64,000 bases of DNA from Methylococcales bacterium. Its GTDB lineage: Bacteria; Pseudomonadota; Gammaproteobacteria; Methylococcales; Methylomonadaceae. The translations under genes were made by a program, and so were the position numbers. Below, piece by piece: positions 4,583 through 29,846 of the stretch. Below the pieces are notes generated by a model. That model was not told the DNA's origin. It worked only from the letters and a program-made list of their open reading frames with translations, and did not search any database. The stretch covers positions 1-64,000 of the forward strand of contig JAQURG010000009.1 of assembly GCA_028715725.1 (NCBI GenBank), given 5' to 3'. Position 1 is the stretch's first letter. Every line of letters starts with the position of its first letter.

Positions 4583-5560
4583 TTATCGTAATGACGGCCA
4601 CTGAATTGCGCTGCCTATTCCCTGTCCGAAATAGGCACCCAGCTTGCCGGCTATTTTATCAAGAAAAGGCCCTTGTTGCGTAAAGTCAACCAGCCTTTCT
4701 GCGCCAATAATATCTTTGGCGACGTTATCATCATTGCCAAAGCCATCAGCAACACCCAGCTTAACACCTGCTTCTCCTGTCCAGACCAGACCTGAAAACA
4801 TCTCGGGCGAGTCTTTCAGGCGATCGCCGCGTCCGGTTTTAACGGCGCTTATAAACTGCTGGTGCACCTGATCTAATAAGCCTTGCATGTATTTGGTTTC
4901 ATCTGCTTTCGGCGGCGAGAAAGGATCGAGCATCGCCTTATGTGCGCCTGCGGTCAGCAGTCGGCGCTCAACGCCCAGCTTTTGCATAATATCAACAAAA
5001 CCGAAGCCATCCATAAGCACGCCTATTGAACCGATAAGGCTGGATTGATTGACAAAAATTTTGTCGCTGGCGGAGGCAATATAATAACAGCCGGATGCGC
5101 ATATATCGCTAACCACTGCATAAACCGGCAAATCGGGATGTTCTTTTTTTATTTTTCTGATTTCTTCATAAACATAAGCGGATTGTACAGGACTGCCTCC
5201 CGGTGAATTGGAATGCAGAATAATGCCTTTGGTATTCCTGTCTTTTACTGCGTCTCTTAAGCTCTCAATAATACTGGATGCATTGGCATCCTTATCTTCA
5301 GCAATAACCCCTACCACATCAATGACTGCGGTATGGCCTTTGCCGTCGCTGCCCATATCATGTTTGATTCTTGGATACATGGCCACGCCCAGCAGGGCAA
5401 TCAGGTATAAAAGCATGACCGACTTAAAAAAAACGCTCCAGCGTCTTGCCCTTGTTTGCTCTGTTATCGAAGCCAGCGCCAGTTTTTCAATGACTTCTCT
5501 TTCCCAGCCCGATTCGCGGGAAACCTCTGCTTTAATCGGATTGTCGTGTTGATTTTCCAT
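4583..5560 (-). CDS. sppA: Signal peptide peptidase SppA, 36K type (S49 family)
   Basis: Inner-membrane serine protease of peptidase family S49 that degrades cleaved signal peptides. It has 325 residues, the short single-domain form rather than the 67K tandem form of E. coli. One N-terminal membrane segment lies at about residues 43-62 (SVMLLYLIALLGVAMY), and the catalytic domain follows. The nucleophile is expected at Ser156 in CASGCYY and the general base at Lys208 in GAHKAM. The motif HSNSPGG near residue 117 is also typical. It lies 13 bases downstream of the HAD phosphatase and belongs to the rluC-HAD-sppA operon that faces rne in many gammaproteobacteria. An AAAGG sequence precedes the ATG. 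Confidence 0.93.
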   Translation of the reverse strand: MENQHDNPIKAEVSRESGWEREVIEKLALASITEQTRARRWSVFFKSVMLLYLIALLGVAMYPRIKHDMGSDGKGHTAVIDVVGVIAEDKDANASSIIESLRDAVKDRNTKGIILHSNSPGGSPVQSAYVYEEIRKIKKEHPDLPVYAVVSDICASGCYYIASASDKIFVNQSSLIGSIGVLMDGFGFVDIMQKLGVERRLLTAGAHKAMLDPFSPPKADETKYMQGLLDQVHQQFISAVKTGRGDRLKDSPEMFSGLVWTGEAGVKLGVADGFGNDDNVAKDIIGAERLVDFTQQGPFLDKIAGKLGAYFGQGIGSAIQWPSLR

Positions 5561-5573
5561 TACTTTTTAACCT

Positions 5574-6221
5574 TTAAATAATATTCAGTAATTCGGTTGG
5601 CTGCTGCAGGCACAACAACGGATTGTATTGTTGCAAGAATTCTTCCGGGTGCGCGCCGCAAGACACGGCGATAGCTGAAATATTGGCATTGAGTGCCATT
5701 TGCAAGTCGTGTGTCGAATCGCCCACCATCAATGTACGTTCATTTGCCGCATTCGTATGTTCAATAATCTCAAGCAGCATCCTTGGGTCAGGCTTGGATG
5801 CGGTTTCGTCAGCGCAGCGGGTCGTACAAAATAAATCCTCAGTTTCTGTAGCCTGCAAGGCGCGTTGCAGGCCGTCTCTGGTTTTTCCGGTGGCAACGGC
5901 CAATTGATAGCCGGCCTCTTTCAATTGCACCAGCATCTGGTATACGCCTGGAAACAAATCGGCTCTGCTGATTTCCCTGGAAATATATTTCCGGCTGTAG
6001 CAGGCCACCAGTTGCTCCTGCGTTTTTGCGTCGGCTTCAGGAAACAGCGCCTGCATGGCCCGTTTAATGCTTAAGCCTATCACATCCTTTGCGGCTTGAG
6101 GCTCAGGAACAGGGTAATCGCACTGTGCAGCTGCACTTTGCAGGCAATCGGTAATCCAGTCTATCGAGTTGATTAAAGTGCCGTCCCAATCAAATATAAT
6201 CAAATCAAATCTGTTCTTCAT
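5574..6221 (-). CDS. HAD-family hydrolase, phosphoglycolate phosphatase-like
   Basis: Haloacid dehalogenase superfamily phosphatase of 215 residues. Motif I is FDWDGTLINS, with the nucleophile at about Asp11. Motif II is the LAVATGKTRDG region near residue 107. Motif III/IV is MVGDSTHDLQMA near residue 167. A helical cap between motif I and motif II fits the Gph/phosphoglycolate phosphatase subgroup, but the substrate cannot be told from sequence. The start overlaps the end of rluC by 17 bases, so the two are translationally close, and sppA follows after 13 bases. This trio is conserved in Pseudomonas-like genomes. Confidence 0.85.
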   Translation of the reverse strand: MKNRFDLIIFDWDGTLINSIDWITDCLQSAAAQCDYPVPEPQAAKDVIGLSIKRAMQALFPEADAKTQEQLVACYSRKYISREISRADLFPGVYQMLVQLKEAGYQLAVATGKTRDGLQRALQATETEDLFCTTRCADETASKPDPRMLLEIIEHTNAANERTLMVGDSTHDLQMALNANISAIAVSCGAHPEEFLQQYNPLLCLQQPTELLNII

Positions 6222-7164
6222 GTTTTAATAAATTTTGTAATTGCAAGGGTAAAGGCGCTGAGATGGTCATCAATAAACCGGTGATGGGATGTTTAAATTG
6301 CAACGTTTCCGCATGCAGAAACATCCGCTTATAGCCTTTCGTTCTAAAAACCTTATTGACCTCATCCAGGCCGTAACGTTCATCTCCGACGATTGGATGA
6401 CCGAGGCTGGCGGCATGAACCCGTATTTGATGAGTGCGTCCGGTTTTGGGTGCAGCTTCAACCAGGGTTGCATTATGAAATAATTTCAAGCGTCTGAACA
6501 ATGTTTCAGCGGCTTTGCCTGACTGGCTGATGACGACTATGCGCTCACCGCCTTTATTAATGTTTTTTAATAAAGGTGCTGTCACCACCAGTTTTTTCCT
6601 GGCCCATTGTCCCGCCAGCAGGGCCTGATAGGTTTTATGAACCTGATCATCCCGGAAAAGCTCATGCAGTTTACGGAGTGCACTGCGTTTCTTGGCGATT
6701 ATCAGGCAGCCGGAGGTATCTTTATCAAGCCTGTGCACCAGTTCTAAAAAATGGGCTTCAGGTCTTATGAGGCGCAGTCCCTCGATTATGCCGGAACTGA
6801 TTCCGCTGCCGCCATGTACGGCAAAACCCGCCGGTTTGTTCACGATCAGGAAGCCTTCATCTTCAAATAAAATGCCCTGTTGTAACGCCTCTTGCAAACC
6901 CTGCGGAACGTACGACTCTTCGCTGCGCTCCGCTACTCTGATCGGTGGAATCCTGACAATATCACCTGAAACCAGACGGTATTTAACATCTACGCGGCCT
7001 TTATTAACCCTGACTTCGCCTTTCCTGACAATTCTGTAAATGCGGCTTTTAGGCACACCTTTCAAGCGTGAAATTAAAAAATTGTCCAGACGCTGATCGT
7101 TGTTCTCTTCGGTTATTTCGATGTTGACAACCTTGGGTAAATCGCTGCTTTCTTCTATGCTCAT
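6205..7164 (-). CDS. rluC: 23S rRNA pseudouridine synthase RluC
   Basis: Converts specific uridines of 23S rRNA to pseudouridine; the E. coli enzyme acts at 955, 2504 and 2580. An N-terminal S4 RNA-binding domain (NDQRLDNFLISRLKGVPKS) is followed by the RsuA/RluA catalytic domain with the HRLDKDTSGCL motif carrying the catalytic aspartate. The C-terminal TGRTHQIRVH and GDERYG motifs are also typical. I choose the ATG at 7164 (MSIEESSDLPKV). The frame is open to a TTG at 7242, but the extra 26 residues do not resemble the family. It is divergent from rne, a conserved arrangement, and the HAD phosphatase overlaps its 3' end. Confidence 0.92.
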   Translation of the reverse strand: MSIEESSDLPKVVNIEITEENNDQRLDNFLISRLKGVPKSRIYRIVRKGEVRVNKGRVDVKYRLVSGDIVRIPPIRVAERSEESYVPQGLQEALQQGILFEDEGFLIVNKPAGFAVHGGSGISSGIIEGLRLIRPEAHFLELVHRLDKDTSGCLIIAKKRSALRKLHELFRDDQVHKTYQALLAGQWARKKLVVTAPLLKNINKGGERIVVISQSGKAAETLFRRLKLFHNATLVEAAPKTGRTHQIRVHAASLGHPIVGDERYGLDEVNKVFRTKGYKRMFLHAETLQFKHPITGLLMTISAPLPLQLQNLLKHEEQI

Positions 7165-7675
7165 GATGTAAATAATATCAGTATCCGGTAATGATTGATT
7201 CTTTAAATTGATGTAGGGCAATAAGGTTGTTATATTAGGCAAGTTTTTTATAAAAACATACTTTAATGCTCTGCGGATTCGGTTAGGGAATCAATCCTGC
7301 CGGGAGCAAATTAATGAAGGTTAAACCAACAATTATTACGTAAATAACTCTTCATTATAAGATTTTTCGGGTTCATCGTTCGACCCTAGACGCGCGATTT
7401 TTAACACCTGTTTAAAACAGAATTTACCTCCAAAGACTGAACATAAATATTAACTTGGTACCTGTCTGCGCTCACTCTGAGGCTTCACCTGTTGAAGTCC
7501 GAAATCACGATAAAATGCGCAGATGACGGAATATAAGACCGCCAAAGCTAAGCGCGATATGTCATTGCCGGACCAGCGCTTTGCGTTGTACCGGTCTGTA
7601 ACATAGTGCAATGACAAAACCCAGTCTGGTTCAGTAAAGTCTGACAATGGAGCAGGAAACTACAAGGATAATTGA
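7165..7675. other. rluC-rne divergent intergenic region / rne leader
   Basis: About 510 bases separating the divergent genes rluC and rne. No convincing coding sequence. By analogy with E. coli, where rne has a long leader through which RNase E controls its own mRNA, most of this is probably the rne 5' untranslated region plus both promoters. One clear stem-loop is listed separately. Confidence 0.6.
7560..7616 (+). promoter_or_regulatory. Stem-loop in the rne leader
   Basis: A perfect 9-base inverted repeat, TGTCATTGC at 7560-7568 and GCAATGACA at 7608-7616, encloses a GC-rich loop. It ends 60 bases before the rne start codon. Position and size resemble the leader hairpins used for RNase E autoregulation in enterics. 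That role is inferred, since the sequence itself is not recognisably homologous. Confidence 0.4.
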
Positions 7676-9991
7676 ATGAAAAGAATGCTTATCAATGCTA
7701 CGCAGGCAGAAGAACTGCGAGTCGCTTTGGTAGACGGTCAAAAACTTTATGATTTTGACATAGAAGTCCCTTCAAAAGAACAAAAAAAATCCAATATATA
7801 TAAAGGTATCATTACTCGCGTAGAACCCAGCCTCGAAGCAGCCTTTATAAATTATGGTGCTGAAAAACATGGTTTTTTGCCTTTTAAGGAAATTTCTCCG
7901 CTCTACCGGCAAACTCAGGAAGGTGCCGACACAGAGGGTCGCCGTCCAGCTATAAAGGATATGATTAAAGAGGGGCAGGAAATCCTTGTTCAGATTGAAA
8001 AAGAAGAACGAGGCAATAAAGGCGCCGCATTAACGACTTATATCAGCCTGGCGGGCACCTATCTGGTGTTAATGCCTAACAATCCCAAGGCAGGCGGCAT
8101 ATCTCGACGTATAGAAGGCGAAACCCGAAGTGATCTGCGTGAAGTCATGGCGTCGCTTGAAATTCCTGAAAATATGGGCTTGATTGTCAGGACGGCGGGA
8201 TGTGGTAAAAACGCTGAAGAACTGCAATGGGATTTAAATTATCTACTCCAGCTATGGGAAGCCATTGAACGCTCGTCCAATGAGCAGTCTGCGCCATTTC
8301 TTGTGTTTCAGGAAAGCAACGTTATCATCAGAGCACTGCGCGACCACTTGCGCGGCAATATCGATGAAATCCTGATCGATAATGAAGATTCATTCAAACT
8401 GGTGCAAGACTTCTTAAAGCAGGTGATGCCGCATTTTTTGCCCAAAGCGAAACTGTATCGAGACGCCGTCCCTTTATTTAATCGTTACCAGATTGAGTCT
8501 CAGATTGAAGTGGCTTATGGCCGTGAAGTATCTTTGCCTTCAGGCGGTTCGCTGGTTATCGATCATACCGAAGCATTGACCTCGATAGATATAAACTCCG
8601 CCCGCGCTACCAAGGGCAGCGATATTGAAGAAACAGCTCTTAATACCAATCTGGAAGCGGCTGATGAAATCGCCCGTCAACTTAGGTTGCGTGATTTAGG
8701 TGGTTTATTTATTATCGATTTCATCGATATGCTGTCCAATAAAAATCAACGCACTGTTGAAAATCATCTGCGTGATGCGCTTAAAATTGACAGGGCGCGG
8801 ATTCAGACCAGCCGCATCTCGCGTTTCGGCCTGCTTGAAATGTCAAGACAAAGAATGCGGCCGTCTCTGGGCGATTCTACCCAATTGCCTTGTCCTCGTT
8901 GTAAAGGCCAGGGGACCATTCGCAATGTTGAATCAGTCGCACTTTCGGTGTTAAGAATTCTTGAAGAAGAAGCCATGAAGAAAGGCACAGAAAAAGTTAT
9001 TGCCCATATGCCAATTGAGTGCGCCACTTTTCTGCTGAATGAAAAGCGCCATGCTATTGAACAAGTTGAAGCACGGCTGAAGGTTGGCATTATCATTCTG
9101 CCCAGTAAACATCTTGAAACGCCGGCTTATGATATTGAGCGTATTAAGGAGAAAGATGCTGTTGAAGAAAAACCCAGTTACCAGCAAATAAAAGCGGAAG
9201 ATATTATTATTCCTGAATTTGCGCAGCAAATAAAATCGAAAATTGAAAAGGCGGCAATCAAGGAATTTATGCATGATTCGCCTGCGCCTGTGCAGACTAA
9301 AAATGAAGCGGACAGCCTGATTAAACGCTTCTGGCATAAGCTTGTAGGTCCGAGTCCCGAGCCTGAAGTGAAAGCACCGCCTGCGCCGGTGATTGAAAAA
9401 GTAAAATCACCTGACGAAGGCCAGCCAGGCAGAAACCGCAATAATAGACGCAGTAGAGGTCAAGGTCAAAAAAACCAGGAGCCGCGTCCTAATCGCGCCC
9501 CACAAGAGCAGGAGGCCAAGCAGGAACAAAACAAGGAAGCCCGACCTCCTCGTAATATCAGAGGGCCTGGACGAAACGTAAGGCGCAACCTCGCACCGGT
9601 CAATAATACTGTAGATGAGGCCGCCGACCTGATTAAAAATGAGCCCGTAGTTGCTGATGAAATGGCTGTAGCTGAAGCTACGGCGCTTTTACCTGAAGTT
9701 TCCTCCCCGGTTGAAGAGCAGGCTAAACAAACAATCAGAAAAAGCCCGAGCAGAAGAGGTCCGAATCGCAGAAGGCCGCGTAACCCCAACTATAAAAAAC
9801 CTGAGGGGGAGGGTGATTCAAATGGTGGTAATGGTGGTGAAGCCGCAACTGAGACTCAACCGACACAAATCCAGTCTTACGACAGTAATTTTGCTGAAAG
9901 AGTAGAAAGAACCGAACATTCCGAACCTCAGTCCAGCTTGCCCGTTGTCACGGAATCCAAGCCAAAAGTGGTTGAAGAAAGCAAGGAATAG
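7676..9991 (+). CDS. rne: Ribonuclease E
   Basis: Essential endoribonuclease for mRNA decay and rRNA/tRNA processing, and scaffold of the RNA degradosome. The N-terminal catalytic half (about residues 1-500) contains the S1 RNA-binding domain ([19 protein letters not shown]), the RNase H-like and DNase I-like regions with [12 protein letters not shown], and the Zn-link [11 protein letters not shown] that joins protomers. The remaining 270 residues are low-complexity, rich in Arg, Pro, Gln and Glu, and fit the unstructured scaffold. They include arginine-rich patches for RNA binding ([12 protein letters not shown] and [14 protein letters not shown]). At 771 residues it is shorter than the E. 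coli protein (1061). AAGGA lies about 8 bases before the ATG. Confidence 0.96.
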
Positions 9992-10002
9992 TAGTACCCG
10001 AG

Positions 10003-10060
10003 AAGGCTCAAGGATAAAAGTGTAACCGTTATAATGGCAAGCTTTTAAACCTTGAGCCTT
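10003..10060. terminator. Long stem-loop between convergent rne and dnaE
   Basis: An 11-base perfect inverted repeat (10003-10013 with 10050-10060) is extended inward by TAAAAG at 10015-10020 pairing with CTTTTA at 10042-10047. This gives a stem of about 17 pairs with a small bulge and a loop near 21 bases. It lies between the convergent rne and dnaE genes and could end both transcripts. The U-tract after it is weak (ATTTGTTG), so it may instead be an mRNA 3'-end stabiliser. Confidence 0.5.
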
Positions 10061-10194
10061 ATTTGTTGATGTTGACCTACATCAAGCGGCATTTGTTAAA
10101 AGGCGGGAGCCATTCTATATGGCTATTTATATGATGAGCCGGTAGAAAACCTGCTCCTGCCTGATCAATACCTGTTTCCCTATCAACACATCAG

Positions 10195-13100
10195 TTATTT
10201 ATATCTGATCTCAACGGCTGTTGGCCCAAGCGTTGATCTCAGGCGAGCAACCAATTCATCCGTTGGATGCACGCGCCATTTATCGCCCAGTTGAACAGTC
10301 GCCCGTGCCTGATGTGACGTGTAATTAATACCAATGGGGCAATTGCCGCCCTTGAAAGGGCTCAGAACCGCATTCAGTCTGTTAATATAAGCATTATCTT
10401 CAAGTTTGTTTTCTGTTGTTGTCCAGGTTAGTTGAATACCCCTCGAAAAACACTCTCTTGCCTGCTCGATGTTGTATAGTTTCTCAACGGTCAGGCGTAA
10501 TGCGCCGGAAAAATTATCAATTGCCAAGGCTCCTTCGGCGATTAAAAGATCATCACGAGCAAAAATATTCCGATACTTATCGTAAACTTCGCCAAAAACG
10601 GCAATTTCCAGTCTTCCGGATTTATCATCAAGGGTGGCAAAGCCCATCGTTTTGCCCTGTTTCGTCTGGCGTGTGCGCACTTCTATGACCAGACCCGCAA
10701 TACGCGCCTCCATGCTGCCGCGCGAAATCTGTAAAGAGCCTATTTTTCCATGCGTAAAATGTTTTAATTCCGGCTCGTATTGGTCAATCGGGTGCCCCGT
10801 CAAAAACAATCCCAGCGTTAATTTTTCTGCCGCCAACCTTTCATTGTCAGACCAGGGCTCAACTACTGTTGTATAAGTTTCGGCTTCCGCGGTCTCTTCC
10901 ATAGCCGCCAAGCCAAACAAATCGTTCTGTCCGGTTTGCGACATTTTTCCATGCTGTTCCGCTACCCGTAAAGCGGTTGGTAATTCCGCCAGATGACTCG
11001 CGCGGTTAGTATCAAATTCATCAAAAGCTCCGGCGCGAATTAATGCTTCAAGCACACGCCGATTAAATTTGCGCAAGTCCACCCGTTTGCATAAATCATA
11101 TAAACCTGAAAATAGGCCATTATCATTGCGTTCTTTAAGCATATCTTCAATTGCCGCCTGACCCACGCCCTTGATTGCGCCAAGTCCATAAACAACATGA
11201 TCATTGTCATTGACGGTAAACCGATAAGTGGAGACATTGATAGTCGGCGGAAGAATGACCAGCTTCATCTGGCGGCATTCTTCTATCAATATCACCACTT
11301 TATCGGTATTGTCCATATCGGAAGAAAGCACTGCGGCCATAAAGGCTGCCGGGTAATGGGCTTTCAGCCAGGCTGTTTGATAGGCGACCAGAGCGTATGC
11401 GGCGGAATGGGATTTGTTAAAACCATAGCCGGCGAATTTTTCCATTAAATCGAAAACATAGGTGGCTATGGACTCATCAATCTGATTGGCAATTGCACCG
11501 GTCGTGAATTTTTCCCGTTCCTTCGCCATTTCCTCCGGCTTCTTTTTGCCCATGGCCCGCCGCAGCATATCCGCTCCGCCCAGCGTATAATGCGCCAGCT
11601 CCCGCGCAATCTGCATCACCTGTTCCTGATACAAAATAACGCCATTGGTGGGTTTCAAAATAGGCTCCAGCAACGGATGGGCATACTCCGCTTTCGCGCC
11701 GTGTTTTACGTTGATGTAATCGTCGACCATGCCTGACTCCAGAGGACCCGGACGAAACAGCGCCACCAGCGCGATAATATCGTCAAAACAGTCGGGTTTG
11801 AGTTTTTTAATCAGCTCCTTCATGCCTCTGGATTCCAACTGGAACACGGCGGTGGTCAGGCCGTTTTTTAACAGCGCATAGGAAGCGGGATCGTCCCTGA
11901 GTATAATGGTAATTTCAACCCGCGCTTCACCTGTCTGCTGTTTTTTATGATTAATGGTTTGCAGCGCCCAATCGATGATGGTCAGCGTGCGCAGACCCAA
12001 AAAGTCAAACTTGACCAGGCCGACGGCTTCCACGTCATCTTTATCAAATTGAGTGACCAGATTACCGCCGCCCTCTTCACAATATAACGGCGTAAAATCG
12101 GTTAATCTGGTTGGCGAGATAACCACGCCGCCTGCGTGCTTGCCTGCATTTCTGGCGGTACCTTCCAGCGACAGCGCCATATCGATCAGCGTCTTGACCT
12201 CTTCTTCGGTGTCATAAAGCTGTTTAAGCTCGGGACTGTCTTTTAGCGCTTTGGTTAACGTCATCCCGATTTCAAAAGGGATCAGCTTGGCCAATCGATC
12301 GACAAAGCCGTAAGCAAAGCCCAATACCCGTCCCACATCGCGGATGACCGCCTTGGCCGCCATCGATCCGTAGGTGATAATCTGCGCCACATGATCCCGG
12401 CCATAATGGCGGGCGACATAATCGATCACTTCATCACGTCTGTCCATGCAAAAGTCGATATCAAAGTCAGGCATGGAAACCCGTTCGGGATTCAAAAAGC
12501 GCTCAAACAGCAAATCAAATTCTATCGGGTCCAGGTCGGTGATTTTCAGCGCATAAGCCACCAGTGAACCGGCGCCTGAGCCGCGTCCCGGGCCGACTGG
12601 AATATGTTCGTTTTTTGCCCACTGAATAAAGTCGGCGACAATCATAAAATAGCCGGGAAATCCCATTTCGGTTATCACCTTTAATTCGGTGTCCAGGCGC
12701 TCATAATAAACCTTGCGGTTTTCATCATCAGTGCCTTTTCCGACCGCCGGATATTGCTGCAAACGATCTTCCAGACCCTTTCTGGACTCATTAGTCATCA
12801 GTTCATCCAGCGTCATCCCCGCCGGCACAGGAAAATCGGGCAGAAAATTCTTCCCCAGCGTCAGCTTTAAATTGCAGCGTTTGGCGATTTCCACGGTGTT
12901 TTCCAGCGCCTCGGGAATATCGGCAAATAACTCCAGCATTTCCTCGGCACTGCGTAAATATTGCTGCTCGGTATAATCCCTGGGCCGGCGTGTATCGTCC
13001 AGTACCCGCCCCTGATTAATGCATACCCGCACTTCATGGGCGGCAAAATCCTTTTTATGCATAAAGCGTACATCATTGGTAGCAACGACAGGCAAACCCG

Positions 13101-22253: not shown

Positions 22254-22771
22254 GGGGCATTATATTCGTTCGGCCGCATTCTTTTGACATCCTCAATAGT
22301 CTTGTTAGGGATGAACGCTCATCTCTTTTTTGTATCTTTTTGCAGAGTCAAAACCAGAGATTAAACTATGAAACTACGCTCAGAATCAGTTTATACACAG
22401 TTTAGTTTGAGTTTATTGATGACGCTTTAAAAATAAAAGAAGAGATTGTAAATCCGGTTCTTGTTTATTAACGTATTGATATTAAAGCAATTAATTATTG
22501 TCTTAATATTGTTCAAGGTTATAAAACTGTAATAAAAACAGTAAGTAAGCGCTCTTAAGCTTCAGTTGTCCCCAGAGTTATCCACAGCTTCTGTGGGTAA
22601 CTTAAATAGTTAAGGCGGCATAGTCACTTAACATTACTACGCTTGCTTCCCACTGGAGGTTAGGAGTTAGCACAGAATAGTGACTTATAAAATCAGGCCC
22701 ATGGAATGCATTGGTTTTTGCATAGTGTATGATAAACTAAACTAACTGAACTTAATTCGATGAGGTTTATC
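22254..22771. other. Intergenic region upstream of the Phd/PIN cassette
   Basis: About 500 bases without a gene. It contains left repeat segment A1 (22488-22630), then the presumed left edge of the toxin-antitoxin insertion and the phd promoter region with AT-rich direct motifs near 22727-22755. No RNA gene is recognised. Confidence 0.55.
22488..22630. repeat. Intergenic repeat copy 1, segment A
   Basis: This segment matches 23850-23990 nearly base for base. The two share an identical 33-base block (22570-22602 here, 23932-23964 there). The block contains TTATCCACA, a perfect DnaA-box sequence at 22578-22586, within a hairpin (AGTTATCCACAG / CTGTGGGTAACT, three-base loop). The match stops after ACTTA at 22626-22630. 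The expected continuation, segment B, reappears at 23461 after the toxin-antitoxin genes. Confidence 0.85.
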
Positions 22772-23017
22772 ATGCAGACAGTCAACATCCACGAAGCCAA
22801 AACCCAACTGTCACGGTTGATAGAGCAGGCCGTAAAGGGTGATTCTTTTATTATCGCCAAAGCTGGAAAGCCACTGGTGAAGGTAATCCGGCTGGATGCG
22901 CCATCAGCCGTACAAATCCGAAGGCTGGGTTTCATGGCGGGGCAGATCACTGTTCCGGATGATTTCGACAGCATGGGCGCTAAGGAAATCGAGCTGCTTT
23001 TTGGCGGTGAAGAATGA
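22772..23017 (+). CDS. Antitoxin, Phd/YefM family
   Basis: An 81-residue type II antitoxin of the Phd/YefM fold, which neutralises the toxin encoded next to it and represses the operon. The conserved N-terminal DNA-binding region reads MQTVNIHEAKTQLSRLIEQ, followed by GKPLVKVIRL. The toxin-binding tail is acidic. I choose the ATG at 22772, which is 7 bases after GAGG; the in-frame ATG at 22760 would add four residues. The stop overlaps the PIN toxin start by 4 bases. The pair lies on a segment that interrupts an intergenic repeat. Confidence 0.92.
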   Translation: MQTVNIHEAKTQLSRLIEQAVKGDSFIIAKAGKPLVKVIRLDAPSAVQIRRLGFMAGQITVPDDFDSMGAKEIELLFGGEE

Positions 23018-23400
23018 AGCTGCTACTGGATACCCATATTTTACTATGGGCGGTTGGTTCGCCTGACCGGTTGCCTGCTGCGGCACGCCAGTTGCTGGAA
23101 GATCCCTTGAACGAACTGCTTTTCAGCGCGGCCAGCCTTTGGGAAATTGTCATCAAACGAGGCCTTGGGCGTTCCGATTTTCAGGTGGATGCAAGGGTGC
23201 TCCGTCGAGGGCTGTTGGACAATGGTTATCAGGAGTTAGCTATTACCAGTGAACACGCTGTTTCTATCGAAAGTTTACCGCCCATCCATAAAGACCCATT
23301 CGACCGCATCCTAGTTGCGCAGGCGACTATTGAGGGAATCATCTTGCTAACAGCAGATGCCTTGGTGGCAAAGTACCCAGGCCCGGTGCGGCAAGTTTAA
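23014..23400 (+). CDS. PIN-domain toxin (VapC-like RNase)
   Basis: A 128-residue PIN-domain endoribonuclease toxin. The acidic metal-binding residues are visible in MKLLLDTHILLWA (Asp6), SLWEIVIK (Glu near 43), KDPFDRILVAQA (Asp near 93) and LLTADALVAKY (Asp near 112). The family is paired with Phd-type antitoxins and cleaves RNA when released. It is translationally coupled to the upstream antitoxin by a 4-base overlap. All expected catalytic residues are present, so it should be active. Confidence 0.92.
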   Translation: MKLLLDTHILLWAVGSPDRLPAAARQLLEDPLNELLFSAASLWEIVIKRGLGRSDFQVDARVLRRGLLDNGYQELAITSEHAVSIESLPPIHKDPFDRILVAQATIEGIILLTADALVAKYPGPVRQV

Positions 23401-23458
23401 TCTTTGAACGGCAGGCAACATTAATGCGTTTTAGCGGCTACATGTTTAGGCGACATAA

Positions 23459-23512
23459 TTACTTAGCAATGAATCATCCAAATTAATTTAACTTCCCTGG
23501 CTAAGTTGCATT
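23459..23512. repeat. Intergenic repeat copy 1, segment B
   Basis: This segment matches 23987-24039 (segment B of copy 2) with few changes. It starts at ACTTA (23461-23465), the same five bases that end segment A1 at 22626-22630. Joining A1 to B1 recreates the continuous A-B order of copy 2. The phd-PIN segment 22631-23460 is therefore best read as an insertion into copy 1. Confidence 0.75.
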
Positions 23513-23577
23513 TTGCTGATGAACTGGTTTTCAGATTGGTGTGTGTAATTATTTAAAAACAGCCACAGGAGATTATT

Positions 23578-23696
23578 ATGCGTATCAATATGATTGATAA
23601 CGAGCTTGTGAGGGATGTCTTAAACTGGCCCGGGAAATCAAACGTGAAGCAGTAGAACAGGGACTTCGAAAACCCGCTGGCATTAAAACAACATGA
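23578..23696 (+). pseudogene. VapB-type antitoxin gene remnant
   Basis: The ATG at 23578 follows a good ribosome-binding site (AGGAG about 8 bases upstream) and opens MRINMIDNELVRDVL, matching the start of VapB-type antitoxins. The frame then shifts. The expected second half is found in another frame as KLAREIKREAVEQGLRK, followed by a stop at 23694-23696. No VapC toxin gene follows, so this is a decayed, solitary antitoxin. Confidence 0.65.
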
Positions 23697-23819
23697 AAAA
23701 ACAGTTTATGCCATATTTTTTGCTGAGTCAGTCCGTATAGAGCGGGAATAGCCTAGCATATTCCACCGAATGATTACTCCAGCAAATCATATGCTATTGT
23801 TGAAACAGCACCCGAGCGC

Positions 23820-23839
23820 GACGGGGTATGTACCCCGTC
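23820..23839. repeat. Perfect short hairpin
   Basis: GACGGGGTA and TACCCCGTC form a perfect 9-base stem with a 2-base loop just upstream of repeat copy 2. There is no T-run, so it is probably not a terminator. Confidence 0.6.
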
Positions 23840-23849
23840 CGGCGCAGGG

Positions 23850-24039
23850 CAATTAACTATTGTCTTAATATTGTTCAAGGATATAAAACTCTAATTAAAA
23901 CAGTAATTAAAGAATCTTAATCTTCAGTTACCCCCAGAGTTATCCACAGCTTCTGTGGGTAACTCGAATAGTTTAAATTGCATAGCTACTTGGCAATGAA
24001 TCATCAAGATTAATTTAACTTCCATAGCTAAGTTGCATT
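23850..24039. repeat. Intergenic repeat copy 2, complete (A+B), with DnaA-box hairpin
   Basis: A complete copy of about 190 bases with both segments contiguous. It carries TTATCCACA at 23940-23948, a perfect DnaA-box match, within a 12-base inverted repeat with a 3-base loop. The copy ends about 175 bases before the first Wadjet gene. Copy 1 lies about 1.3 kb to the left and is split by the phd-PIN cassette. Confidence 0.85.
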
Positions 24040-24215
24040 CAGATGTTGAGTGGTACCTGACGTCATCAGTCACAGGTACAATGGTATAACCCTCATTAAA
24101 ATTGCTTAGCAGTTTGCCTTCTACTTTGGAAATCAATCAGATTGGCTTAAGCTAAGTTGAAGTAAATAGTTAGCTTTTAAATGTAATTATTAAATGAGTT
24201 TTCTCTATCTGGCAT

Positions 24216-25010
24216 ATGTATATTTATAAATATCTTGAAAATATTAAGTCTGGAAAGCCAATCAACTTTGACAGCTTTTGTAAGCAGCTACGCCTTAAAG
24301 AATATGATGACCAAACTATTTTGAGGATTTTCTCGACACAGAAGATTTCCAGGTTGAGCTATCAGGTCAGCATTATTGATGACAAGCTGTTTGCGCAACT
24401 TCTAGCTGATTTCCCTAAATATTCAATAATTAATAGAGTTTCGGCTGCAAGAGCTGGCGACAGTCATAAACATCCGGTTAGTCAGGCGATGATTATTCTC
24501 TGGCCGAGTCAGCAAAGTCATCCGGTAGTCGTTTTGAATGATGTCAATGGGATAAAATCCCCGGTCGCGTTGGGTAAACGATTATTGATTATCGAAAATC
24601 AGGAAAACTTTGTGCAAAAAAATGAATCCTTGGCATTTTTAAAGCATCAGTTTTCTGATTTTAATGATGAAGGATTAGATATTGCGTGGGGCTCCGGTAA
24701 TGCCATCAGTAATCGCTTGAATAAAGCATTTTTCAATCACTATCCGCACATCGATTGTTTACTTGATCTGGATATTGGCGGGCTTACAACTTTTGCAAAT
24801 ATATGTGAATTAACCTCCCATCCCCGAATTAGTTTTTTATTGCCTTCTTGTGCCGATGAGCAATTAAAAAGTTCGAAGATGGATTTACAAAATGGACATT
24901 TGCCGACCTTACGCAAATTTCGTGAGAATTACCCACTGTTAAAACCAGCCATTGAATTGATGATCCATCACAAAAAAATGCTGGAACAGGAAACATATTT
25001 ACTGGATTAA
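24216..25010 (+). CDS. jetD: JetD/MksG-like Toprim nuclease subunit (short form)
   Basis: A 264-residue protein that I read as the Toprim-type nuclease subunit of a Wadjet/MksBEFG system, which cleaves circular DNA extruded by the SMC motor. Toprim-like motifs are IIENQENF (Glu127, matching the first acidic residue of the JetD Toprim), WGSGNAIS near 158, and CLLDLDIGGLTTF (Asp184 and Asp186), followed by FLLP. The N-terminal part (1-110) has no recognised domain. It is shorter than the roughly 380-residue JetD proteins. It is the first gene of the operon and ends 2 bases before the ATPase gene, which suggests co-translation. Family assignment rests on motifs and context only. Confidence 0.7.
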   Translation: MYIYKYLENIKSGKPINFDSFCKQLRLKEYDDQTILRIFSTQKISRLSYQVSIIDDKLFAQLLADFPKYSIINRVSAARAGDSHKHPVSQAMIILWPSQQSHPVVVLNDVNGIKSPVALGKRLLIIENQENFVQKNESLAFLKHQFSDFNDEGLDIAWGSGNAISNRLNKAFFNHYPHIDCLLDLDIGGLTTFANICELTSHPRISFLLPSCADEQLKSSKMDLQNGHLPTLRKFRENYPLLKPAIELMIHHKKMLEQETYLLD

Positions 25011-25012
25011 TC

Positions 25013-27925
25013 ATGGAAAATTTGGAATTACTGGATAAAAAAATCGCCTACTCGGTGAGAAAGCTGATTGCGATTAACTCAATCAGCTATTGCTATACCG
25101 AGTTACCGATTGACCGGCATTGCGCGTTGTTCGGTCGCAATAATTTAGGTAAAACTTCGCTTTTGAATGCGCTGAAACTGCATCTTTTTCCGGAAATTAG
25201 TTTTAATGACTGCAAAACCAAGTTTGCTTTTAAATCCTCCAAGGGTGAGCTGTACTCCACAGAAGACAGCTACAACTATTATTTCCCGACCGACAGCAGT
25301 TTTCTAATTCTGGAGGCGGAAAATATCCACGGTTCTTTTTGCCTGATTCTATTCAAATCCAATAGCAGCTTCGGTTATCAACGGTTGGCATTGCCCTGTG
25401 CTTATGATGAGATTCGTGCGCAGTTTTGGGATATTCATAATACAGAAGTGAATAATGGCTTGGGTAGTCCTGTGTCGGATTTGGGCATTCCGAAAATACA
25501 TGCTTTGCATCAACAGTATAAGGACGATGGTGCAGTGCTGCTAACAACTACGAAAGACATAAAGGAAAAACTGTTTAGCCATAATCCGATGCAGAGAGCC
25601 AAGGGCCGTTATTGTTTGGTGCCTTTAAAAGAAGGCGGGAAAGAACGTGAGCTAAGTGCTTTTCGCCAGCTAATGAATTTTACTTTTGAAATTGCTAAAA
25701 CCGACACCAAAGGTTTGACCGAAACCTTTGCCACTATCATTGAAAGCGGCAAAATCAATGCCCAGGATAAGTTGCATCAGGATTTGCAAGTGATTCTGAA
25801 TGAATACAACGAGCTGCGTCAGAGCCAGGATAAACTGAAAGCTATAGCGAATTATCGTGATGACTTTAAGCAATTGAACGAGATGTCTCAAAGCCTGCAA
25901 GACCACCAGTTACGCTTTGCGGGCACTTTTATGACTTATAAGAATTGTCTGGATAAGATGACAGCTGAATCACAACAGCAGACAGTGAAGCTTGAGCCCA
26001 AAGTAAAAAAGCTATTAAGCGAACAGCACAAACTTAAAAGCATGGAAAACGAACAGCGGCAAAGCTTTGGAGAATTTACAGGGCAGTTAAAGACCTTGAA
26101 TAAGATCATTGATGAACTCAATCAAAAAATTGCGCGTTTTCAAAAGATTCAAAGTCAATACCAGGATGCTGAAATTGCCGACATCCGTAATGTTTTGCAA
26201 TTGCGTCTGAGTGAATTGGATGAAAAAATCAATTGCTTAAAAGATAGCCACAAGGCGATTGACACTCTGACCTCCAAAATCATGTTGCAAAAAAGCAAAA
26301 TTGTTGATCGGAACAAGAAAAAACAGATGGTCGAACAATACGACTCATTGCTGATTAATCAAATTGACGAACACAGCGCCACAGTATTGAGTAATTTGAA
26401 CGCACACTTCTTGGAGATAATGGTTAAGCCCGGTGCGGAGCAGACAAAGATTATCGATCAATTCGGCCAACTATTTAGGATTGATGAAGCCCGCATGGAT
26501 TTTCTGGGTGAAAGCTTTATTGCGGAGTCTTTAAAATCACCGCAGCAAATTAGGGAAGAGTTGCAACAGGGGCTGGATAGCCTGGAAACTGAAATCCAAA
26601 AATTGGATCGAGAGATTCTTGATTTGAAAAAGATGTCCAATGTGTCGGGTGACTATCAGCAGGCGCAATTACAGGAAGCGGAAAAAAATTGGCTAGCAGT
26701 TAAAGAAGATGTGAAAATGGTCAACGCATTTGAGGATACGCAACAGCAGTGGCAATCTAAAACAAGCGAAATAGAAGAGGCTGAAAACGCGCAGAAACAG
26801 CTGGAAAAGCAACGGGAAGAAACTCAGGATATACTGAAACAAAACCTTAACGATTACGCAGCCACTAAAGAAAATCTGGAATCATTGAATAAACAAGCAC
26901 AGGAAGCAGCTTCCCTGTCGCAACGACTACAAAATATGAAGCCTGATGAACCGACTAAATCAGAAATTCGCGCGATCAATAGCGTTTCGGCGAGCGATCT
27001 GGATGAACTTGAAAGTGAACAAGTAAAAATTAAGCATCTGAAAGAAAATCTGGATAAAAAAATCAATGAATTTGTCCAATGCGGTCATTTTTCGGTGCCT
27101 GTCGAGATAGCGTACAGCAGCTACAGCAACGAACAGCAACGCGCTATTCTGGATGCTTTGAACAACACTTTTGTCGCATTGCCCGATCATCAGGAAAACT
27201 TGCAAAGCCGGATCATCGAACATAACAAAATGACCGGCGCAAAGATTAGTGAGCTGACCGGTAATCGCAGTCATATCCGTACCTTCATCAACAATGTCAA
27301 TAAACAATTTGAACACTACAGCATTTCCAATCTGAAGGACATCAAAGTGGAAATTGAGTTGGATCATCGGTTTGAAGAACTGGTTAATGAGTTGGATCGC
27401 ACAAATCTGAACACGATCGATATTTATGACGATGGCTTATATCAGCGTCTGAATCAGTTCTGTGCGGATTTTTTCATCGGCGGGCGCGGCAACCGCATTC
27501 TGGAAATGAGCAAAATCATCACCAACGTCAAATACAGTTATAAAAAAGAGCATCAGGACAAGCGTGAACAAAAAGACCAGAGTAACGGTACCAACGCGCT
27601 GATTAATTGCACGCTGCTGACTATTTTGCTGAGCGATTTATTGGCGCAGGACAGCGATCTGACCTTGCCGGTAATTTTTGACGAGTTTAGCAATCTCGAT
27701 GAATATAACCAGCGTACCGCGATTCAGGCTGCAACCAAACATGGCTTTGCTTTGTTCTGTGCTTCGCCCACGCAAACGGCTGAAGTGGTTGCCGTTGTGG
27801 ATCACTATATTACACTTGATGATTTTCATGCCAATACCATTTACGACGCCAGCGGCGAACGTGATGTGGTGTTTCATCACTTCTCGGAACGACTTTATGA
27901 TGTGGCGGAGCGGCAGGTATTATGA
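25013..27925 (+). CDS. jetC: JetC/MksB-like SMC-type ATPase
   Basis: A 970-residue SMC-like motor ATPase. The head is split between the termini, with Walker A GRNNLGKTS at residues 41-49 and, near the C-terminus, a signature-like region NGTNALINC (about 859) and Walker B VIFDEFSNLDE (about 887-897) with a catalytic Glu at 891. Between them lies a long heptad-rich coiled coil, from roughly 250 to 800, rich in Gln, Glu, Lys and Leu, with a small hinge-like interruption. In Wadjet this subunit extrudes DNA loops and senses circular DNA size. It overlaps the next gene by 4 bases. Alternatives such as MukB or a RecN/SbcC-like ATPase fit less well with the small kleisin- and KITE-like partners. Confidence 0.85.
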   Translation: MENLELLDKKIAYSVRKLIAINSISYCYTELPIDRHCALFGRNNLGKTSLLNALKLHLFPEISFNDCKTKFAFKSSKGELYSTEDSYNYYFPTDSSFLILEAENIHGSFCLILFKSNSSFGYQRLALPCAYDEIRAQFWDIHNTEVNNGLGSPVSDLGIPKIHALHQQYKDDGAVLLTTTKDIKEKLFSHNPMQRAKGRYCLVPLKEGGKERELSAFRQLMNFTFEIAKTDTKGLTETFATIIESGKINAQDKLHQDLQVILNEYNELRQSQDKLKAIANYRDDFKQLNEMSQSLQDHQLRFAGTFMTYKNCLDKMTAESQQQTVKLEPKVKKLLSEQHKLKSMENEQRQSFGEFTGQLKTLNKIIDELNQKIARFQKIQSQYQDAEIADIRNVLQLRLSELDEKINCLKDSHKAIDTLTSKIMLQKSKIVDRNKKKQMVEQYDSLLINQIDEHSATVLSNLNAHFLEIMVKPGAEQTKIIDQFGQLFRIDEARMDFLGESFIAESLKSPQQIREELQQGLDSLETEIQKLDREILDLKKMSNVSGDYQQAQLQEAEKNWLAVKEDVKMVNAFEDTQQQWQSKTSEIEEAENAQKQLEKQREETQDILKQNLNDYAATKENLESLNKQAQEAASLSQRLQNMKPDEPTKSEIRAINSVSASDLDELESEQVKIKHLKENLDKKINEFVQCGHFSVPVEIAYSSYSNEQQRAILDALNNTFVALPDHQENLQSRIIEHNKMTGAKISELTGNRSHIRTFINNVNKQFEHYSISNLKDIKVEIELDHRFEELVNELDRTNLNTIDIYDDGLYQRLNQFCADFFIGGRGNRILEMSKIITNVKYSYKKEHQDKREQKDQSNGTNALINCTLLTILLSDLLAQDSDLTLPVIFDEFSNLDEYNQRTAIQAATKHGFALFCASPTQTAEVVAVVDHYITLDDFHANTIYDASGERDVVFHHFSERLYDVAERQVL

Positions 27926-29310
27926 ATGTCGCTTTAGATCGCACCCTAATTTTGCTGATCGAACATAAGGATATGATGTTTCAACTGATTGATTATATGG
28001 ATCAGAATCAGCGCAAGGATTTACCTACCGAGGTGTTTTACAATAGCATCCGTGTCAAGCTGGAAAATATAGGGAATAAGAAGGAGGCGGATCGGGATCG
28101 GCTTAACAATGCTTTTGATCTGGGTAACCTGATTAAAACCGGGATTATCTCCGAGTTTAATAAATCTCGCGGAACAATCGCCTTACAACCAGCCGTGCTG
28201 GATATTTTTCGTTTGTTCGATAAGGAACGGGTACGCGGATTGAGCAGTGCGGACTTGGAAAATATCCGCGTACAACTGGAAGGCGCACTTCAACGACTTG
28301 AATCGTTAAGCTTTGCCGAAGATAACCTCGACTTCCTTGAACAGCATGACCAGCTTTTTGATTTATTGCGTAAAATTAACAGTCAGATTCAAAGTAATAC
28401 CGATCATTTGCAGTTTGAAGCTGACCGCTTATCTCAACGATTGGATCATGATCAGGCGTTGTTGTCATTGAATGAATCCCGTCAGCACCGGGAAATTCTG
28501 GCGCAGGTAAAAAAGATTTATGACCGGGAAATTATTCCCACTTTGGAGTTTCTTAACGCCAGGGAATACAGCAAAACCAAAGCGCCGTTGACTGTGATTG
28601 ACGATATAAGCCGACTTTACGGTATTCGGGGTCATGAAGCCGATAGCTATTATATCGATCAATATAAACTGTCGATACTCAGTCATTACAAAGCGGTGGA
28701 AAAGGTCAAGCAGGCTCTGCAACGCTATTTGCACCAGGAACGGCGGCACAGGCTGACCTATGATGCGATTGAAAAGGCGTATTTGAATTTACAAGCTTTG
28801 GCGCAAAGCACTTTTACCGAAAGCCTGAAAGAGAAATACATTTTCAAGTCGTTGGATTCGGAAACGCTCTATTTTTACGGTCTTAAAACGCATTCAGCCG
28901 GGCAGGAAGCCCGTATCGAATGGCATGATCGTAATCACATGATTTACTTTAATGAATATCTGATACAGCAAAGTGCGCGAAAACGTAGCGATAGCTCGGC
29001 CCAGATCAAGACCTTTAATGATAGGCAGCAGAATGACCGGCATAATGCCATCAAGCGGAGAATCGACCAGTTGGTCAAGCAGTTTGATATTAAACCGCCG
29101 GTCGATGATTTATATCTGGTTGTACACAACCTGCTGGCGGAAAAGTTAAAGCAGGATTATCAACTGAACTATTTGCTGTACGGCGTAAGCAGTTTTAAAC
29201 AGCGGTACGGCAAAAAATTCAAGGTGCAGGTGAGCTTTAACAAACCTCAGCAGAGTATCCGTTATCAAAATCAAGTGCTGGAATACAACAAACGCGAGTT
29301 TATCTTATGA
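27922..29310 (+). CDS. jetA: JetA/MksF-like kleisin subunit
   Basis: A 462-residue protein read as the kleisin subunit that bridges the two SMC heads. It begins MNVALDRTLILLIEHKDMMF and contains winged-helix-like N-terminal sequence (TEVFYNSIRVKLENI), followed by a helical middle region (about 120-260) such as LEGALQRLESLSFAEDNLDF. The C-terminal part is basic and mixed. I see no enzymatic motif. It overlaps the ATPase gene by 4 bases and the KITE-like gene by 4 bases, so all should be made in fixed ratio. Assignment comes from length and position within an SMC operon rather than from a strong motif. Confidence 0.7.
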   Translation: MNVALDRTLILLIEHKDMMFQLIDYMDQNQRKDLPTEVFYNSIRVKLENIGNKKEADRDRLNNAFDLGNLIKTGIISEFNKSRGTIALQPAVLDIFRLFDKERVRGLSSADLENIRVQLEGALQRLESLSFAEDNLDFLEQHDQLFDLLRKINSQIQSNTDHLQFEADRLSQRLDHDQALLSLNESRQHREILAQVKKIYDREIIPTLEFLNAREYSKTKAPLTVIDDISRLYGIRGHEADSYYIDQYKLSILSHYKAVEKVKQALQRYLHQERRHRLTYDAIEKAYLNLQALAQSTFTESLKEKYIFKSLDSETLYFYGLKTHSAGQEARIEWHDRNHMIYFNEYLIQQSARKRSDSSAQIKTFNDRQQNDRHNAIKRRIDQLVKQFDIKPPVDDLYLVVHNLLAEKLKQDYQLNYLLYGVSSFKQRYGKKFKVQVSFNKPQQSIRYQNQVLEYNKREFIL

Positions 29311-29846
29311 TTAGTAACGAGCTCAGCCAAGCAATTTACAACGATCTGGTTAAAGGCAAGACCATTAATAAGCACAGCTATGTCGTTAAAACAAACGAGT
29401 TGGAAGAGAACTTGCTGTATAACGAGATTTTTATCAACTTTGATGAATATCGGCAACTGTATCAGCGTATTAATTTTGACTTGATACATAAAAACAGCAG
29501 CTTTTTTTTCATCCGTGAAATGAATGGCGGCGATGCGAATGAGGCGACTATTAAGATTCAAGCGTTGCTGATTATTATCGGGCGTATCGTTACAGAGAAA
29601 GGCTATCTTTTCGACGTGCTCACCGATCATCGCGCCGGAATCGGATTGGAAGACCTTTCTGTCGCTATGTCGGAAGAGCATTACAGCGATATTCTACATA
29701 CTTGTAAACTATGCGTGTCGCGCAGCATTGAAGACGAAATCAATAGTCATTTAATTATCCGAGGCATTATGTTTAAAAACAGCCGTGGACATTATGTGTT
29801 AAGCGATGCCGGAACTGCTTTTTTTAGTGAGCTTACAGAAGCTTAA
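29307..29846 (+). CDS. jetB: JetB/MksE-like KITE subunit
   Basis: A 179-residue acidic protein read as the KITE (tandem winged-helix) subunit that binds the kleisin. The N-terminal half has INKHSYVVKTNELEENLLYNE-like short-helix sequence. The second half holds IKIQALLIIIGRIVTEKGY, which matches the MksE-type core, and ends LSDAGTAFFSELTEA. It is the last gene of the operon. The next gene, priA, starts 137 bases later after a change to a core region. Its identity depends largely on position after the kleisin-like gene. Confidence 0.7.
   Translation: MISNELSQAIYNDLVKGKTINKHSYVVKTNELEENLLYNEIFINFDEYRQLYQRINFDLIHKNSSFFFIREMNGGDANEATIKIQALLIIIGRIVTEKGYLFDVLTDHRAGIGLEDLSVAMSEEHYSDILHTCKLCVSRSIEDEINSHLIIRGIMFKNSRGHYVLSDAGTAFFSELTEA

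What the first reader, a model, noticed from the sequence alone, without database searches (positions are those of the whole stretch)
24216..29846. Wadjet-like operon with the nuclease gene first (D-C-A-B order)
Four overlapping or nearly overlapping genes encode a Toprim protein, an SMC-like ATPase, and kleisin- and KITE-like proteins. This fits a Wadjet/MksBEFG plasmid-defence condensin. The described JetABCD operons have the order kleisin, KITE, ATPase, nuclease. Here the nuclease comes first and the kleisin and KITE last. The rearranged order and divergent sequences may mark a distinct subtype.
Basis: partly seen in the sequence, partly recalled or inferred. Interest (0 to 1): 0.65.

Follow-up and report, generated by a model that had tools for sequence, protein, structure and literature searches.

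The report
Nuclease-first Mks/Wadjet plasmid-defence operon
Four linked genes in a methane-oxidising bacterium encode a DNA-looping motor plus a DNA-cutting enzyme of the kind that destroys invading plasmids; they belong to a small, apparently unclassified branch of that known defence family in which the cutter gene comes first.

Summary
Four intact, nearly overlapping genes (24216-29846) encode, in order, a 264-aa Toprim nuclease, a 970-aa SMC ATPase, a 462-aa MukF-like kleisin and a 179-aa MksE-type KITE. All four are under strong purifying selection. The same D-C-A-B order recurs in Methylobacter relatives at different chromosomal sites and in about a dozen distant gammaproteobacterial loci, two of them on large plasmids. 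In an ATPase tree these loci form one clade (98/97), apart from type I JetC and from short MksFEB(G)-type operons, which keep the usual A-B-C-D order. The nuclease folds like C. glutamicum MksG (Z 14.4), Topo VI-A and JetD, and keeps the Toprim E and DxD residues, but it lacks the long N-terminal part of type I JetD. Kleisin, KITE and nuclease profiles match the Mks family best. PADLOC finds no JetA and almost no JetB in the clade, so searches with those models would miss it. The most likely function is DNA-measuring cleavage of small circular DNA, as in Wadjet. This is a new variant of a known kind, not a new mechanism. Gene orders of types II and III could not be checked, and function is inferred from homology.

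The parts
24216..25010 (+). D: short JetD/MksG-like nuclease (264 aa): small N-terminal winged-helix-like part plus Toprim domain
   Evidence: AF2 model pLDDT 92.7; best PDB match MksG 8b7f Z 14.4; HHalign to type I JetD 94.8%
24594..24773 (+). Toprim catalytic residues of D: E127 (24594-24596), D184 (24765-24767) and D186 (24771-24773)
   Evidence: E127 and D184 invariant, D186 at least 90% in 20 homologues; aligns by eye with ENxxNF and GDxDxxG of type I JetD
24984..24992 (+). C-terminal EQE motif of D (residues 257-259)
   Evidence: invariant in 20 of 20 homologues; RLEQE also present in type I JetD
25013..27925 (+). C: SMC/JetC/MksB-like ATPase (970 aa) with ATPase motifs at both ends
   Evidence: weak JetC1, NF040859 and DUF3584 matches; tree
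25133..25156 (+). Walker A GRNNLGKT of C
   Evidence: GK in 18 of 18 homologues
27578..27592 (+). ABC signature-like QSNGT of C
   Evidence: S857 in 18 of 18, T860 in 17 of 18
27668..27685 (+). Walker B PVIFDE of C
   Evidence: D890 and E891 in 18 of 18
27922..29310 (+). A: kleisin, MukF/MksF type (462 aa)
   Evidence: AF2 model matches MukF 7nz2_C1 Z 13.9 and 1t98 Z 13.8; HHalign to MksF-like proteins 93.9%
29307..29846 (+). B: KITE protein, MksE family (179 aa)
   Evidence: Pfam PF21980 MksE E 1.1e-15, over cut-off; found in 18 of 18 homologues

Best explanation
The operon encodes a four-subunit SMC-nuclease of the MksBEFG/Wadjet kind that restricts circular extrachromosomal DNA. The ATPase (C) dimerises and is bridged by the MukF-like kleisin (A) bound by the KITE (B), and the motor pulls DNA through as a loop (inferred). 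When a small closed circle is fully extruded, the stalled motor brings the Toprim nuclease (D) into its active form and D cuts the plasmid (inferred from type I Wadjet). D keeps the Toprim metal-binding residues and the C-terminal EQE motif but lacks the long N-terminal part of type I JetD, so its docking on the motor probably differs (inferred). The nuclease-first order D-C-A-B is the common order of a distinct gammaproteobacterial clade that lies near the short MksFEB(G) operons.
For: Four intact genes. B is MksE, Pfam PF21980. A folds like MukF. D folds like MksG, Topo VI-A and JetD with E and DxD kept. C has Walker A, signature and Walker B conserved. Profile-profile links to Mks A, B and D, and of D to type I JetD. 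D matches a JetD1 model in 14 of 20 homologues and Pfam JetD_C in 7 of 20. Clade-specific order. Purifying selection. Defence-island neighbours in relatives: Gabija and type III RE at L044, type III RM at L041. A divergent WYL regulator lies upstream in four clade loci and two Mks loci. Rare and patchy: 3 of 35 good-quality genomes among the relatives, own included, and 4 of 312 class genomes with strong hits, own included. Found on 320-kb and 599-kb plasmids, above the size range that Wadjet is reported to restrict (PMC10586767).
Against: No experiment. The window copy is not in an obvious defence island and has no WYL gene; its upstream neighbour is a toxin-antitoxin-like pair. A and B are not detectably related in sequence to type I JetA and JetB by HHalign. 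Complex formation was not modelled. A role in chromosome maintenance, as for P. aeruginosa MksBEF, is not excluded.
Confidence: 0.78

Rival explanations
1. A chromosome-organising condensin (MksBEF-like) that acquired a Toprim subunit used for DNA repair or decatenation rather than defence.
For: The A, B and D profiles match the Mks family best, and P. aeruginosa MksBEF acts in chromosome segregation (PMC7485682, abstract).
Against: Patchy distribution and different surroundings in close relatives; defence-island and plasmid contexts; D is a JetD/MksG homologue with nuclease residues kept.
Confidence: 0.1
2. An SMC-nuclease defence aimed mainly at phage DNA or another substrate rather than small plasmids.
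For: Clustering with anti-phage systems in relatives; a WYL regulator at several loci; D differs from type I JetD in its N-terminal part.
Against: The characterised relatives, type I Wadjet and C. glutamicum MksBEFG, act on plasmids (PMC10123090, PMC10586767).
Confidence: 0.1
3. An ordinary type II or III Wadjet whose described order is already nuclease-first.
For: Operon organisation is said to differ between types (PMC12647877); some homologues of D hit JetD3 models weakly.
Against: No PADLOC type II or III model matches A or B in any clade member. The type II and III JetC profiles that C touches are mostly 1355-1473 positions long against 970 aa here, and the matches are weak stretches within C's central region.
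Confidence: 0.05

Closest known systems
MksFEB(G) short-type operons (Pfam MksE PF21980, NCBIfam NF040858/NF040859)
   Same: MksE-family KITE, MksF-like kleisin, roughly 930-950-aa ATPase and 277-316-aa Toprim protein; HHalign 94-98% for A, B and D
   Different: Their order is A-B-C-D (L052, L053, L054, L056, L086); separate clade in the ATPase tree
Wadjet type I JetABCD / C. glutamicum MksBEFG
   Same: Four subunits of the same kinds; D motifs ENxxNF, GSG, DxD and EQE; D fold matches MksG 8b7f and JetD 7til
   Different: Order A-B-C-D; JetC about 1100-1214 aa; JetD about 400 aa with an extra N-terminal part; A and B not detectably similar in sequence
MukBEF
   Same: Kleisin fold like MukF, Z about 13.9; KITE distantly like MukE
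   Different: No nuclease gene; MukB 1486 aa; order mukF-mukE-mukB

Membership tests
Wadjet type I (JetABCD) | JetA1, JetB1, JetC1 and JetD1 profile matches | tested here: not met
   A none; B none in the window copy; C and D only weak. Positive control: the own genome's type I operon scores up to 740 (JetA1) and 984 (JetC1) bits.
Wadjet type I (JetABCD) | Toprim nuclease with E and DxD | tested here: met
   E127, D184, D186 conserved; fold match to JetD/MksG
Wadjet type I (JetABCD) | Gene order kleisin-KITE-ATPase-nuclease | tested here: not met
   D-C-A-B; type I controls L109, L111, L113, L107 are A-B-C-D
MksBEFG family in the wide sense | MksE (PF21980) KITE | tested here: met
   E 1.1e-15 over cut-off; 18 of 18 homologues
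MksBEFG family in the wide sense | MukF-type kleisin and SMC ATPase with Walker A, signature and Walker B | tested here: met
MksFEB(G) short-type subgroup | Falls inside that subgroup's ATPase clade | tested here: not met
   Separate clade, 98/97 against 99/99; 80/85 against 100/99 with long branches removed
Wadjet types II and III | Type-specific JetA, JetB, JetC and JetD profiles | tested here: not met
   No A or B matches; C and D marginal
Wadjet types II and III | Gene order of those types | not testable with these tools
   Defining papers not held; no clear type II or III operon turned up in 150-200 phylum genomes
Wadjet (function) | Restriction of small circular plasmids | not testable with these tools
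   needs experiment

The most novel reading that the evidence does not exclude
The nuclease-first clade is a separate Wadjet type with its own nuclease activation: D lacks the long N-terminal part that type I JetD has, so the motor must recruit and unlock it differently, possibly with a different DNA size or topology threshold.
Probability: 0.35. Interest if true: 0.55.

Novelty: new variant of a known kind. Interest (0 to 1): 0.4.

Why it matters
The PADLOC models tested here do not recognise this clade's kleisin and hardly its KITE, so plasmid-restriction capacity is probably undercounted in gammaproteobacteria, methanotrophs among them. A compact SMC-nuclease with a 264-aa nuclease and a 970-aa motor would be a useful minimal model for how loop extrusion triggers cutting, and it sits between defence (Wadjet) and chromosome (MksBEF/MukBEF) condensins.

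Tried and rejected
PDB sequence searches with C alone, D alone, or the A, B, C and D profiles gave no informative hit; only fold comparison worked. JetC2 and JetC3 profiles over phylum genomes gave weak partial hits that look like coiled-coil noise. JetD2 and JetD3 searches gave weak hits; those followed up were type I nucleases or, at L108, not a clear operon. A WYL remnant upstream of the window operon was looked for and not found. No phage record gave a match to D. The 143-nt repeats upstream were checked as possible operon boundaries: they flank the toxin-antitoxin pair, not the operon. No empty-site comparison was made. Papers with type II and III operon maps are not held. Promoter and terminator scans gave no more sites than shuffles.

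Full report
What is there. The window contains four genes on the + strand: D 24216-25010 (264 aa), C 25013-27925 (970 aa), A 27922-29310 (462 aa) and B 29307-29846 (179 aa). They are separated by a 2-nt gap and then two 4-nt overlaps, so they very likely form one operon. Pfam recognises B as MksE (PF21980, E 1.1e-15, over its cut-off); C gives only weak DUF3584 and AAA matches, and D and A nothing of note. PADLOC gives C a weak JetC1 match (3.7e-9) and D a weak JetD1 match (2.7e-4), and nothing for A or B. NCBIfam links C to the 926-position model NF040859 at 1.2e-9.

Conservation. The same four genes in the same order occur in close methanotroph relatives, including Methylobacter and Methylococcaceae assemblies, and in one more distant genome of the same order (L014-L017, L021), in several different chromosomal surroundings. 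L013 has the same block but an in-frame stop in C. dN/dS against four relatives is about 0.04 to 0.15 for each gene where it could be estimated, so the genes are kept for function. The operon is patchy: 3 of 35 good-quality genomes among the relatives carry D, the own genome included, and 4 of 312 genomes of the class have strong hits with a diverse D profile, again with the own genome included.

A clade with its own order. Searches with D, B and C found about a dozen distant loci, all gammaproteobacterial: L030, L031, L041-L046, L048, L049, and on plasmids L050 (Photobacterium damselae, 599 kb) and L051 (Methylophaga thalassica, 320 kb). In each the order is D-C-A-B; L050 has two extra small genes between C and A, and the A gene of L042 and L049 was recognised by position rather than by the first A profile. 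L087 shows D-C and then the contig nearly ends. Related but more distant loci (L052, L053, L054, L056, L086) are A-B-C-D, as are the type I controls. An ATPase-head tree puts all D-C-A-B loci on one side of a branch with 98/97 support, the A-B-C-D Mks loci in another group (99/99) and type I in a third (99/92). With the longest branches removed the clade remains at 80/85, and a Toprim-domain tree gives 94/93. A single origin of the order is therefore the simplest reading. The sequences are very divergent, and the tree program warned that long branches meet, so the exact sister group is not settled: the Toprim tree draws the clade next to type I, while profile comparison favours Mks.

Subunit identities. 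Profile-profile comparison links A, B and D of the clade to the Mks loci (93.9, 97.2 and 97.7% probability), and D to type I JetD (94.8%). A against type I JetA (0.5%) or MukF (0.9%) is below detection by sequence; three cross-family negative controls gave 0.1-0.2%. The AlphaFold2 model of D (mean pLDDT 92.7) matches C. glutamicum MksG best (8b7f, Z 14.4 over residues 89-264), then Topo VI-A (Z 11.4), P. aeruginosa JetD (7til, Z 10.5) and Spo11. E127, D184, D186 and the terminal EQE are invariant or nearly so and have visible counterparts in type I JetD. D is 264 aa against about 400 for type I JetD: the extra N-terminal part is missing, while residues 1-65 look like a small winged helix in the model (inference from its secondary structure). 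The model of A (mean pLDDT 74) has winged-helix-like ends and a low-confidence linker, and its best matches are MukF chains (7nz2 Z 13.9, spanning the whole model but with a large rmsd; 1t98 Z 13.8), with type II JetA also listed (9qe0, Z 9.4). For a mostly helical protein such Z values alone are not decisive, but the MukF chains fill the top eight places. C keeps Walker A (GK 18/18), the signature serine (18/18) and Walker B DE (18/18).

Membership. As a positive control, the same genome carries a canonical type I Wadjet on contig C8 (L025), whose proteins score hundreds of bits on JetA1, JetB1, JetC1 and JetD1 models. The window operon does not: across the clade, PADLOC finds JetA in 0 of 20 kleisins, JetB in 2 of 18 KITEs (weakly) and a JetD1 model in 14 of 20 nucleases (weakly). 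So it is not a type I Wadjet by profile or order, and no type II or III model matches A or B. By MksE family, kleisin fold and ATPase it belongs to the MksBEFG family in the wide sense, as a separate branch.

How it most likely works. Shown by computation: subunit composition, conserved catalytic residues, predicted folds of D and A, selection, clade-specific order. Inferred from type I Wadjet and MksBEFG (PMC10586767, PMC10123090): the C-A-B motor extrudes DNA, and a small circle that is fully extruded triggers D to cut it. Presence on plasmids of 320 and 599 kb fits a system that spares large circles (Wadjet is described as acting on plasmids below about 50-100 kb, PMC10586767). Some clade members sit beside Gabija, type III restriction or other candidate defence genes, and a divergent WYL regulator lies next to L043, L049, L051 and L087 and two Mks loci, which fits a regulated defence system. 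The window copy itself has only a toxin-antitoxin-like pair upstream.

Limits. No complex was modelled and no experiment exists. Gene orders of Wadjet types II and III could not be verified: the primary papers are not held, and searches of 150-200 phylum genomes turned up no clear operon of those types. One open paper states that the three types differ in operon organisation (PMC12647877), so a nuclease-first order could exist there too. Literature searches for a described Wadjet subtype of this kind found none in the open-licence library, which does not hold most subscription papers.

Noticed in passing
L025 (G000:C8:25000-40000), locus 5152-11890: The same genome has a second, canonical type I Wadjet (A-B-C-D) whose jetC is split by a frameshift near 9370, so it may be inactive or a sequencing error.
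   Followed up: partly
window 22487-24049: A small toxin-antitoxin-like pair (22760-23400) is flanked by 143-nt direct repeats (22487-22629 and 23849-23991, 85% identical); a 69-nt repeat (23454-23522 / 23981-24049) lies beside it. Elsewhere in the genome there are only weak partial matches.
   Followed up: partly
L047 8615-9502 (G515): A gene similar to D stands alone, with no C, A or B next to it.
   Followed up: no
L013 1846-4758: The ATPase gene of a close relative is interrupted by an in-frame stop, although D, A and B are open.
   Followed up: no
L055, L057, L058: Bacteroidota plasmids carry A-B-C loci with a much longer ATPase (about 1220-1234 aa); L055 has an MksE KITE. L057 has a separate D-like gene after C; L055 and L058 show none nearby.
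   Followed up: partly
window 25013-27925, match to NCBIfam NF040859: The model named MksF (926 positions) matches the SMC ATPase, not the kleisin, in these loci; the subunit name looks swapped.
   Followed up: no
L050 9938-10712: In the Photobacterium damselae plasmid two small genes (one DUF5406) lie inside the operon between C and A.
   Followed up: no
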